This document shows, piece by piece, positions 64-44,290 of a stretch of DNA of 50,954 nucleotides. The DNA is taken from NCBI GenBank assembly GCA_031272545.1, contig JAISTP010000029.1, positions 1 to 50,954 of the forward strand, in the 5' to 3' direction. Source of the stretch: Bacilli bacterium (GTDB lineage: Bacteria; Bacillota_I; Bacilli_A; JAJDGJ01). A program made the translations under genes and the position numbers. Each line of letters starts with the position of its first letter. The first letter of the stretch is position 1. The notes under the pieces are model-generated. The model did not search any database and was not told the origin of the DNA. It saw only the letters and a program-made list of their open reading frames with translations.

Positions 64-1227
64 TTATAAATCTAAATACTCTCTAATTTGATCAACCATA
101 TCTAATTTTTCCCAAGGTAAATCTAAATCTTGACGGCCCATATGACCATAAGCCGCTACTTGTTTAAATATTGGTTTATTTAAAGATAAACGCTTAATAA
201 TACCACCAGGTGTTAAATCAAATAAAGCTTTAATACATTTTAATATATCATTTTCTAAAACTTTATTAGTATTAAAAGTATCAACACTAATACTAATTGG
301 TTCAGCTACTCCAATAGCATAAGATAATTGAATTTCTACTTTATCACATATTTTGGCACCAACTAAATTAGTCGCAATATGACGTGCCGCATAAGCAGCA
401 GAACGATCAACTTTAGTTGCATCTTTCCCTGAAAAAGCACCACCACCATGTTTAGCATAACCACCATATGTATCCACAATAATCTTACGACCAGTTAATC
501 CTGTATCACCATGAGGACCACCAATATGAAAAATACCAGTTGGATTAATTAAAACATTAAAATCACTATTTAAACCAAAAGATGTAACTACTGGTTTCAT
601 AATATGTTCAATTATATAAGTATGAAATTCATGTTCATTATAATCAATATCATGTTGGATAGACATTAAAACAGTATCAATACGAGGTTTATGTTCATCA
701 CTATAATCAATAGTAACTTGTGATTTCATATCTGGTCGAGCCCACTTAAATAAACCTTGTTTGCGTTGATTAGTAGCTTCACGCACCAACTTATGAGCTA
801 TTACTATTGCTAGAGGCATATTCCCTGCTGTTTCATTACATGCATATCCAAACATAATTCCTTGATCGCCTGCTCCTAATTTATCAACACCTTGAGCAAT
901 ATCACCACTTTGTTCATGCATAATAACTTCAATATTTGCACTAGTTGGATCAAAATCAATTTCTGCATCATGATAGCCAATTTCTTCAATCGTTTCTTTT
1001 GCTATTCTAATAATTTCCGGTTTAATAGTTTCTTTATTATATTTTTTATTACGAAACTCACCACCTATTATTAATCTTTGTGTAGTAATAAAACATTCAC
1101 ATGCACAACGTGAATTTTCATCACTAGCTAATAAAAAGTCTAAAACACCATCACTTATTTGATCACAAATTTTATCAGGATGTCCCTCACTAACTGATTC
1201 TGAAGTAAACAATTTTCTTTCTTCCAT
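64..1227 (-). CDS. metK: S-adenosylmethionine synthetase
   Basis: Makes S-adenosylmethionine from methionine and ATP in the cytoplasm. The 387-residue length is normal for the family. Both signature stretches are visible: GAGDQGIMFGYA at about residues 118-129 and GGGAFSGKDATKVDRS at about 261-276, and the N-terminal GHPDK motif lies at 15-19. A GAGGAG ribosome site lies about 9 nt before the ATG. The gene is a single unit: a SAM-I riboswitch with its own terminator fills the leader, so product feedback on transcription is expected. Nothing in the protein looks unusual, and no other assignment is plausible. Confidence 0.98.
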   Translation of the reverse strand: MEERKLFTSESVSEGHPDKICDQISDGVLDFLLASDENSRCACECFITTQRLIIGGEFRNKKYNKETIKPEIIRIAKETIEEIGYHDAEIDFDPTSANIEVIMHEQSGDIAQGVDKLGAGDQGIMFGYACNETAGNMPLAIVIAHKLVREATNQRKQGLFKWARPDMKSQVTIDYSDEHKPRIDTVLMSIQHDIDYNEHEFHTYIIEHIMKPVVTSFGLNSDFNVLINPTGIFHIGGPHGDTGLTGRKIIVDTYGGYAKHGGGAFSGKDATKVDRSAAYAARHIATNLVGAKICDKVEIQLSYAIGVAEPISISVDTFNTNKVLENDILKCIKALFDLTPGGIIKRLSLNKPIFKQVAAYGHMGRQDLDLPWEKLDMVDQIREYLDL

Positions 1228-1284
1228 TCTTTAATCTCCTCTACATAAAATATATTAAATTTAATAAATGTCTTATTGTTTTTA

Positions 1285-1316
1285 ATAAATAAAAACACCT
1301 AAGATAACTAGGTGCT
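1285..1316 (-). terminator. SAM-I riboswitch terminator hairpin
   Basis: On the minus strand the arms CACCTA (complement of 1309-1314) and TAGGTG (complement of 1296-1301) are followed by TTTTTATTTATT. It lies between the aptamer and metK, the expected place for the off-state terminator of a SAM-I riboswitch. Confidence 0.8.
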
Positions 1317-1326
1317 ACTATGCTAT

Positions 1327-1406
1327 CTTATCTCTAGAAATTACCACCTAACTTAATAGGTTGGTGTGATATCATCAGGTCTAGTCCCTCCATCACTCTT
1401 GATAAG
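1327..1406 (-). ncRNA. SAM-I riboswitch aptamer (S box)
   Basis: The closing helix pairs CTTATC (complement of 1401-1406) with GATAAG (complement of 1327-1332). Inside, the minus strand shows the conserved S-box segments AAGAGTGATGGAGGGAC, a GATGATATC-like core and GGTGGTAATTTC. Position upstream of metK and the following terminator hairpin fit a transcriptional OFF switch that closes when SAM binds. Confidence 0.93.
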
Positions 1407-1441
1407 TATTTTTATCATTTATTTATTAAATTTGCATAACT

Positions 1442-14071: not shown

Positions 14072-14124
14072 TAGCACATCTTTCTTTTCTAATATTATAA
14101 AATTTATTTACTCTTATCTATTAA

Positions 14125-14203
14125 AATAGCCAGCACATTATAGTTACTCCTTAAGGCTGCTACTTTTCAGTCCTGACCTGGTTCGAAGGCTATAATTGCC
14201 AGC
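14125..14203 (-). ncRNA. ffs: signal recognition particle RNA (small 4.5S-like)
   Basis: The minus strand carries the domain IV core: GGTCAGGACTG, AAAAGTAGCAGCC and flanking pairing arms. The ends GCTGGC...GCTGGC pair through G-C and G-U pairs, and ATTATAG pairs with CTATAAT. At about 75 nt it is the short form lacking the Alu domain. A promoter sits at the right distance, and a U-rich stretch (TATTTTAAT) follows. Confidence 0.92.
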
Positions 14204-14209
14204 ATCTAA

Positions 14210-14238
14210 ATTTTATCATTTTTATTAGTTAAATACAA
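14210..14238 (-). promoter_or_regulatory. promoter for SRP RNA
   Basis: Minus strand TTGTAT (complement of 14233-14238), 17-nt spacer, TAAAAT (complement of 14210-14215). The predicted start is the G at 14203, matching the RNA 5' end. The same transcript may continue into tadA. Confidence 0.75.
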
Positions 14239-43243: not shown

Positions 43244-44134
43244 TTATTCATTACTATTTATTATTTCATTTTCATTAGCAACATCATTCATTAAATGTTG
43301 TTTAAATTGTTTAGGAATATATCTAATGATTAATGAAATAACAATAATATTTAAAGGCAACATGATTATTGCTTTAATCATTCTGGTAATCATGCCAATA
43401 TACATAGGTACTCCATACATTAAATTAACCCATAGTGAAGTTAATATAATATGACATATAACTTCAACACTTAATACAATTAATGATAATTGAGGAATAG
43501 ATATTTTATATTGTGAAGATAAAACTAATTTCTTTTGCATTATAAAATTAATGATACAAATTATAATCGCAATAATAATTAAACTAATTAAAATCATATA
43601 TCTAATACCATCATTTAATTGTGTTTTATTTTGATCAATTGAGATTACATCAACATTAAATAAATATATTCCTGAAAATACAATAATAGCTAGTAAAACT
43701 GAAATAATAATCATATTAATTAATGTTTTATTAAATTGTTTAGTCCAACGATAAAGAATACAAGGAATAAAAATTGATAACATTGCGGTTAAGGTAAAAC
43801 CAACATATGGCATAGAATTATCACCTGAAGCACTTGCGATTAACATTCCTAAAATATCAGTTACTAATCCTGCTAATAGACACAACTTAGGATTAATTAA
43901 TAAACCTAAACTAATAGAAACAGCTGAAGCAAAAGATATTACAAACATTGGCTGAGAAGGTGGAAATTTTAAAGCAATAAACTTATTCAATATCGCAATT
44001 ATTACCACAAATAAAGCTACTAAAGCAATATCTTGAACACTAATTTTAGATTTATCATTTTTAAATGCATAGAAAAACAAAGCTAAAATAACTAAAATAA
44101 CAATAATACTTGAAATAATTAAACTTAAATTCAT
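43244..44134 (-). CDS. folT: folate ECF transporter S component
   Basis: 296 residues, longer than most S components. About seven to eight membrane helices, with FASAVSISLGLLINPKLCLL, AGLVTDILGMLIASASGD and YVGFTLTAMLSIFIPCILYRW resembling the substrate-binding helices of FolT. An extra N-terminal helix (about 1-25) and a middle variable loop (SIDQNKTQLNDG) are unusual. It would bind folate and work with the shared ECF module EcfA/A'/T encoded elsewhere. The THF riboswitch in its leader supports the folate call more strongly than the sequence alone. Confidence 0.85.
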   Translation of the reverse strand: MNLSLIISSIIVILVILALFFYAFKNDKSKISVQDIALVALFVVIIAILNKFIALKFPPSQPMFVISFASAVSISLGLLINPKLCLLAGLVTDILGMLIASASGDNSMPYVGFTLTAMLSIFIPCILYRWTKQFNKTLINMIIISVLLAIIVFSGIYLFNVDVISIDQNKTQLNDGIRYMILISLIIIAIIICIINFIMQKKLVLSSQYKISIPQLSLIVLSVEVICHIILTSLWVNLMYGVPMYIGMITRMIKAIIMLPLNIIVISLIIRYIPKQFKQHLMNDVANENEIINSNE

Positions 44135-44162
44135 AAAAAAAGCCTCCTATAATTATAGAGAC
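44135..44162 (-). promoter_or_regulatory. folT leader hairpin overlapping the ribosome site
   Basis: Minus strand GTCTC and TATAA pair with TTATA and GAGGC with one bulged G, followed by seven T and then the ATG. The 3' arm contains AGGAGG, the folT ribosome site 8 nt from the start. It may work as riboswitch terminator and/or mask. Confidence 0.7.
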
Positions 44163-44177
44163 CACTAAATAAAAATA

Positions 44178-44255
44178 ATTAGCGGATGCAATAACTTAAG
44201 ATGCAGTATTAATCAACATCCCATATTAATACTTAATTAAGTTATCTACTCTAAT
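44178..44255 (-). ncRNA. THF (tetrahydrofolate) riboswitch
   Basis: The minus strand shows conserved THF-aptamer blocks: AGAGTAGATAACTT near the 5' end, ATGGGATGTTGAT in the middle and TTATTGCATCCGCT at the 3' end, with ATTAG/CTAAT as closing helix and AACTTA/TAAGTT as an inner helix. Its place before a FolT-type gene matches the known distribution in Firmicutes. Confidence 0.9.
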
Positions 44256-44261
44256 GCAACA

Positions 44262-44290
44262 ATTATAATACAAGAATTATCTTATTACAA
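44262..44290 (-). promoter_or_regulatory. promoter of the THF riboswitch-folT transcript
   Basis: Minus strand TTGTAA (complement of 44285-44290), 17-nt spacer, TATAAT (complement of 44262-44267), placing the transcript start at the edge of the aptamer. Confidence 0.75.

What the first reader, a model, noticed from the sequence alone, without database searches (positions are those of the whole stretch)
44135..44290. THF riboswitch whose output hairpin is both terminator-like and covers the ribosome site
The folT leader has a promoter, a complete THF aptamer, then a bulged hairpin directly followed by seven T and the ATG. The 3' arm contains AGGAGG, the ribosome site. The same fold could therefore stop transcription and hide the start, a compact two-level switch.
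Basis: partly seen in the sequence, partly recalled or inferred. Interest (0 to 1): 0.55.

Follow-up and report, generated by a model that had tools for sequence, protein, structure and literature searches.

The report
Folate-sensing switch hiding a start site
An RNA switch in front of a bacterial folate-uptake gene has one small hairpin that covers the ribosome's landing site and also looks like a weak stop signal for transcription; it is a good new example of a design already described for other RNA switches.

Summary
On the minus strand, a TTGTAA-17-TATAAT promoter, a THF riboswitch (RF01831, 40.9 bits) and a hairpin carrying AGGAGG in its 3' arm, followed by seven T and ATG, precede the only folT found in the genome. 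It is not chance: no other of 88 SD starts sampled in this genome has a comparably terminator-like hairpin. Eight other leaders, nine in all from three families, keep the same layout, with compensatory changes in both competing helices. Two corrections. The aptamer is not complete: P4 is missing, although the sister genus has it. And the two levels are unequally supported: SD hiding is conserved in 9 of 9 leaders; terminator character varies and is absent in one. The merged hairpin is common in Clostridial THF riboswitches (d>0 in 16 of 69 starts against 0 of 219 neighbouring starts). 'Dual' platforms with the RBS inside the terminator hairpin were named in 2007 (PMC2258182). Verdict: a real, well-supported new member of a known kind; ligand binding and termination remain untested.

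The parts
44262..44290 (-). Promoter TTGTAA-17-TATAAT; puts the transcript start close to the first base of the aptamer
   Evidence: consensus scan (16 such sites found, 16.5 expected, so the scan alone proves nothing); TTGnnn-17-TATAAT kept in all four family members
44178..44255 (-). THF-I riboswitch aptamer (P1, P2, P3, L3-J2/1 pseudoknot letters GGAUG/CAUCC) without P4
   Evidence: RF01831 40.9 bits, E 1e-7; P4 present in sister genus L005, L006
44162..44185 (-). Anti-P1 (ON) hairpin: CCGC (44185-44182, part of J2/1 and P1) with GUGG (44165-44162); -7.2 kcal/mol
   Evidence: outer four pairs 9 of 9, inner pairs covary
44141..44163 (-). Output (OFF) hairpin, SD sequestor and terminator-like: GGUCUCU (44163-44157) with GGAGGCU (44147-44141), -6.3 kcal/mol
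   Evidence: seven pairs standard in 9 of 9 leaders, basal pairs covary
44143..44148 (-). Shine-Dalgarno AGGAGG inside the 3' arm of the output hairpin
   Evidence: sequence; 8 nt from ATG
44135..44141 (-). Seven-T tract directly before the start codon; the first T closes the hairpin as a G-U pair
   Evidence: only run of 6 or more among 90 SD-start spacers
43244..44134 (-). folT, folate family ECF transporter S component, 296 aa; the only copy found in the genome
   Evidence: TIGR04518 77.8 bits; own-genome search

Best explanation
A THF-I riboswitch OFF switch with a merged, 'dual' expression platform. Without ligand, CCGC at the 3' end of the aptamer pairs with GUGG; this takes away the two basal G's of the output hairpin, leaving a 5-pair core of about -1.7 kcal/mol that neither stops polymerase nor hides the SD well, so folT is made. 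With reduced folate bound, J2/1 and P1 are locked in the aptamer, GUGG is free, the basal pairs close, and the 7-pair hairpin hides AGGAGG. While the RNA is still in the polymerase, the same hairpin and the U tract behind it can end some transcripts just before the AUG. Shown by sequence and comparison: the anatomy, its conservation, covariation of both helices. Computed: the change in SD accessibility. Inferred: folate binding, OFF logic in the cell, and partial termination. SD hiding is probably the main action; termination is the less certain part.
For: Aptamer and gene. Nine leaders of three families keep CCGC..GUGG and the SD hairpin; seven sequestor pairs standard in 9 of 9, with G-C to A-U in a basal pair; anti-P1 position 6 A-U/C-G/G-U and position 7 A-U/U-A. 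Modelled SD opening cost higher when bound in 9 of 9 (3.6 to 5.6 in the window; up to 3.3 to 10.6 elsewhere). Removing the two basal pairs takes the hairpin from -6.3 to -1.7 kcal/mol. Terminator character: d -2.8 against a next best of -33.5 in 88 starts; real 3' ends of the genome have median -1.55 (46 ends). Across THF riboswitches from the scan, SD-overlapping terminator d>0 in 16 of 69 starts against 0 of 219 other starts in the same loci; T run of 5 or more in the spacer 17 of 69 against 6 of 219.
Against: The hairpin is weaker by energy than 38 of 45 hairpins found at convergent 3' ends. d is below 0 in the window and -12 to -16 in its three nearest relatives; G184 has only three T and d -41.8. 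For the window itself the computed gain on binding is small (2.0 kcal/mol) and 15 of 150 shuffled platforms reach it; G184 likewise (21 of 150) and G002 (10 of 150). With another transcript end, G002 shows no gain. The free-state ensemble still pairs the SD mostly (unpaired 0.21 free, 0.16 bound). No binding, RNA or expression data.
Confidence: 0.56

Rival explanations
1. Translation-only OFF switch: the hairpin hides the SD on full-length RNA, and the U tract is just a permissive, T-rich spacer or lengthens the stem by G-U pairs with GUG.
For: Sequestor conserved in 9 of 9 leaders while the T run falls to 4 (three leaders) and 3 (one); the hairpin is weak; a further G-U pair with the U's just after the stem is possible in all nine (columns -3/-4); T is 40% of SD-start spacer letters in this genome.
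Against: A run of 7 T is unique among 90 spacers; 8 of 9 leaders have 4 or more T where only 7 of 90 and 15 of 132 background spacers do; the same T excess appears in THF riboswitches of other clades.
Confidence: 0.34
2. Transcription-only switch: the hairpin is a terminator and its overlap with the SD is a by-product of a short leader.
For: Terminator score near the median of the genome's real terminators; a conventional terminator platform is seen at the SAM riboswitch in the same window.
Against: The SD-pairing stem is better conserved than the U tract; the terminator score collapses in G184 while the SD stem stays.
Confidence: 0.05
3. Decaying riboswitch: loss of P4 has cost ligand control, and the leader is a relic.
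For: P4 and most of the junction are lost in both species of the genus; the window scores lower than the sister genus (40.9 against 59.7 and 62.7); the window shows a small computed switch.
Against: Promoter -10 to ATG is strongly conserved between the two P4-less species while flanking DNA is not; the L3/J2-1 pseudoknot letters and P1 are intact; another genus keeps P4-less aptamers in 10 of 11 matching genomes; the pseudoknot site alone is reported as essential for gene control (PMC9881143, passages).
Confidence: 0.05

Closest known systems
THF-I riboswitch (Rfam RF01831), Gram-positive folT leaders
   Same: P1-P2-P3, L3/J2-1 pseudoknot letters, folT downstream, strand exchange between P1/J2-1 and an anti-P1 helix
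   Different: P4 and with it the three-way-junction site are missing in this genus
'Dual transcription and translation attenuation' platforms (Barrick and Breaker 2007, PMC2258182), described there for riboswitch classes known before THF
   Same: terminator-like hairpin within 10 nt of the start codon with the RBS in its 3' side
   Different: here on a THF aptamer; a weak hairpin; switching through two basal pairs
Clostridial folT-type THF leaders found here (e.g. L058, L098, L068)
   Same: AGGAG(G) in the 3' arm of the output hairpin, T tract, ATG a few nt after the hairpin end
   Different: hairpins of about -18 to -30 kcal/mol and d up to 37; in L058 the anti-helix overlaps the upper part of the 5' arm rather than the base (read by eye)
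SAM-I riboswitch before a metK-like gene in the same window (1325-1408, minus)
   Same: same genome, riboswitch leader
   Different: conventional terminator placed well before a separate SD

Membership tests
THF-I riboswitch (RF01831) | score above the curated gathering score | tested here: met
   40.9 bits against 36; with default filters not reported
THF-I riboswitch (RF01831) | P1, P2, P3 helices and conserved GAGUA / GGGAxGUUG / GCAUCCGCU | tested here: met
   alignment; same letters in G001
THF-I riboswitch (RF01831) | pseudoknot L3 (GGAUG) with J2/1 (CAUCC) | tested here: met
   complementary letters present in window and G001-G003; pairing itself not measured
THF-I riboswitch (RF01831) | P4 helix and inverted three-way junction with second ligand site (canonical form; the curated score does not require it) | tested here: not met
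   3 nt in place of 15; same in G001; present in G002, G003
THF-I riboswitch (RF01831) | folate uptake or synthesis gene downstream | tested here: met
   TIGR04518
THF-I riboswitch (RF01831) | binds reduced folates | not testable with these tools
   needs in-line probing or ITC
Dual transcription/translation attenuation platform (PMC2258182) | RBS in the 3' side of the hairpin, hairpin within 10 nt of the start codon | tested here: met
   hairpin ends 44141, ATG at 44134, SD 44148-44143
Dual transcription/translation attenuation platform (PMC2258182) | hairpin qualifies as an intrinsic terminator | tested here: inconclusive
   d -2.8, just under 0, but above 21 of 46 real 3' ends and above all 87 other SD starts; Rnall, the 2007 program, was not available
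Dual transcription/translation attenuation platform (PMC2258182) | mutually exclusive anti-helix that uses aptamer bases | tested here: met
   CCGC:GUGG in 9 of 9 with covarying inner pairs
Dual transcription/translation attenuation platform (PMC2258182) | ligand-dependent termination and translation | not testable with these tools
   needs transcription and translation assays

The most novel reading that the evidence does not exclude
A minimal THF riboswitch: a single-site, P4-less aptamer that starts at about +1, joined to a single weak hairpin that is at once terminator and SD cover and is worked by a two-pair basal latch, the transcribed control unit taking about 125 nt up to the AUG; P4 loss arose independently at least twice, and merged terminator/SD hairpins are a standing design of THF riboswitches rather than an oddity.
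Probability: 0.4. Interest if true: 0.45.

Novelty: new member of a known kind. Interest (0 to 1): 0.33.

Why it matters
If true, this leader is a very small natural test case for two open points: whether a hairpin as weak as -6 kcal/mol with a good U tract terminates and hides the SD in the same molecule, and whether the second THF site (P4/three-way junction) is dispensable in nature. The enrichment of U tracts between SD and AUG in THF leaders (17 of 69 against 6 of 219) makes the dual design testable across a whole riboswitch class.

Tried and rejected
Rfam with default filters did not report the THF riboswitch, so family-based whole-genome counts were replaced by patterns. folT homologues further out in the class (L007-L014) showed no THF aptamer. 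A viral-contig scan for folT relatives gave none. The exact platform pattern was found only in the four family members among 395 class genomes; a looser one gave 13 genomes, of which I kept nine (four family members and five with RF01831 hits) and rejected four as chance (L200, L205-L207, no RF01831). L181 looked like chance and was dropped; L183 (a THF leader with another platform) was looked at and not used further. These are related genomes, so the Fisher values overstate certainty. Anti-P1 energies printed are off by one base and are not used; one search replaces them. The constants of the terminator score d (d'Aubenton-Carafa form, ViennaRNA energies) are recalled, so d is used mainly for ranking within this report.

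Full report
What is there. The finding lies on the minus strand, in the leader of folT (43244-44134), about 121 nt from the first aptamer base to the ATG. folT is a folate-family ECF transporter S component (TIGR04518, 77.8 bits over a cut-off of 60) and the only such gene found in the genome. Rfam with permissive filters gives a THF riboswitch, RF01831, at 44255-44178, 40.9 bits against a gathering score of 36, E 1e-7. The default filters missed it in the window and in the whole genome, a warning for surveys of AT-rich genomes. A TTGTAA-17-TATAAT promoter ends 6 nt before the first aptamer base. The promoter scan alone finds as many sites as chance (16 against 16.5), but all four genomes of the family keep TTGnnn-17-TATAAT in this place.

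Output hairpin. After the aptamer come GUGG (44165-44162), the stem GGUCUCU/GGAGGCU (44163-44141, -6.3 kcal/mol), a seven-T run (44141-44135) and ATG (44134). AGGAGG (44148-44143) is in the 3' arm. The favoured stem is unbulged, seven pairs of which three are G-U.

Is it more than chance? I took 325 kb of the window's genome (window included) and 400 kb of a relative. Among 90 starts with an SD core of at least five, the folT spacer is the only one with six or more T in a row; runs of four or more occur in 7 of 90 here and 15 of 132 in the relative. Scoring SD-overlapping hairpins as terminators (d'Aubenton-Carafa form; constants recalled), folT has d -2.8, the next best of 88 starts has -33.5, and the best of 127 starts in the relative has -36.6. 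The folT leaders of the three other family members score -15.8, -16.2 and -12.5. At 3' ends between convergent genes d has median -1.55 (46 ends) and -1.2 (66 ends); random coding windows exceed -20 in 4 of 259 and 4 of 350. By energy the folT hairpin is at the weak end: 38 of 45 hairpins at convergent 3' ends of this genome are at -6.5 or lower. It is thus terminator-like for a start site, and an average to weak terminator as terminators go.

Comparison. The four genomes of the family keep GTGGTCTCT..AGGAGGCTTTT exactly. A looser pattern over 395 class genomes gave 13 genomes; nine have genuine THF leaders, in three families (f1, f9, f21; RF01831 at 48.7 to 77 bits for the five outside f1), and four are chance. 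Two of the downstream genes outside f1 were tested and are folT-family proteins (63.1 and 80.9 bits over 60). In all nine, the seven pairs of the sequestor are standard pairs; the basal pairs change together (G-C in four, A-U in four, G-U in one; next pair G-U or G-C). In the competing anti-P1 helix the outer CCGC:GUGG is invariant (the pattern itself required CCGC and GUGG, so this is partly by construction), position 6 is A-U, C-G or G-U in eight of nine, and position 7 is A-U or U-A in nine of nine. Both alternative helices are therefore supported by compensatory change.

How it switches. CCGC is part of J2/1 and P1, which the bound aptamer uses; GUGG supplies the two basal G's of the sequestor in this family. 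Losing them takes the hairpin from -6.3 to -1.7 kcal/mol. With P1 and J2/1 forced into the bound form, the cost of opening the SD rises in all nine: 3.6 to 5.6 in the window, 3.0 to 7.6 in G001, 3.3 to 10.6 in G322. Against shuffled platforms the rise is convincing in G001, G044, G322 and G239 (0 of 150 each), fair in G143 (2) and G003 (5), and weak in G002 (10), the window (15) and G184 (21). With a slightly different transcript G002 shows no rise. The logic is OFF with ligand, as expected for an uptake gene.

Two levels? T runs in the nine are 7, 4, 5, 6, 5, 6, 4, 4, 3 and best d values -2.8, -15.8, -16.2, -12.5, -2.9, -6.7, 1.1, -5.3, -41.8 (its anti-P1 energies are wrong by one base and replaced). 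So hiding the SD is the constant, and terminator character is usual but absent in G184. SD-overlapping hairpins with d>0 occur in 16 of 69, against 0 of 219 other starts in the same loci; T runs of five or more in the spacer in 17 of 69 against 6 of 219; T makes up 50% against 27% of spacer letters (Fisher values, not corrected for relatedness). Many Clostridial leaders have a much stronger version, such as L058 and L098 with d 32 and 37. The other 53 of 69 do not reach d>0, and some have a separate upstream terminator, so the merged form is one design among several.

The aptamer. In the Rfam alignment the window has 3 nt where the model has 15, the place of P4. G001, the other species of the genus, is the same; G002 and G003, the sister genus, have P4 and score 59.7 and 62.7. 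Short, P4-less matches also make up 10 of 11 hits in the genus of L067, an Anaerococcus record (11 of 31 genomes matched), and 2 of the 72 kept hits by length. In passages of PMC9881143 only the pseudoknot site is said to be essential for gene control and the junction site to matter for folding; passages of PMC6800512 say that some THF-I aptamers bind one ligand. The P4-less form fits that, and looks like a variant rather than a relic: between G000 and G001 the leader from -10 to ATG is strongly conserved while flanking DNA is not.

Known or new. PMC2258182 (passages) describes platforms in which the RBS lies in the 3' side of a terminator hairpin, calls them dual expression platforms, and classifies riboswitches as such when a predicted terminator is within 10 nt of the start. 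folT here fits that geometry. Searches (listings) showed no paper that reports this for THF riboswitches, but the founding THF-I papers (Ames 2010, Huang 2011) and Wilt 2021 are not held and Trausch 2011 was not read, so I do not claim that it is unreported. PMC11477058 and PMC10907184 were seen in passages only.

Verdict. A real and well-conserved THF OFF switch with a merged SD/terminator-like hairpin: a new member of a known kind, with a P4-less aptamer as its most unusual part. Ligand binding, termination and translation effects are all untested.

Noticed in passing
window 1227-1408 (-): SAM-I riboswitch (RF00162, 55.9 bits) before a metK-like gene (64-1227), with a conventional separate terminator well upstream of the SD: the same genome uses the ordinary design there.
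   Followed up: partly
L067, L104, L184-L191, L193, L194: P4-less THF aptamers in the genus of an Anaerococcus record, keeping GCGTTAAGTG (one with AGCGTTAAGTG) and ACGAA; looks like an independent loss of P4.
   Followed up: partly
whole genome G000 / RF01831: Rfam's default filters miss this above-threshold THF riboswitch in the window and the whole genome; AT-rich THF riboswitches may be under-counted.
   Followed up: partly
L197 281-1480 (-): In f21 the folT-family domain is the C-terminal part of a 400-aa protein with a long N-terminal extension behind the same THF leader.
   Followed up: no
window 14121-14212 (-): Bacterial small SRP RNA (RF00169, 57.6 bits).
   Followed up: no
L095, L100, L101, L132: Some THF leaders have a strong terminator 73 to 146 nt before the start, separate from the SD: conventional transcription platforms coexist with the merged kind.
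   Followed up: no
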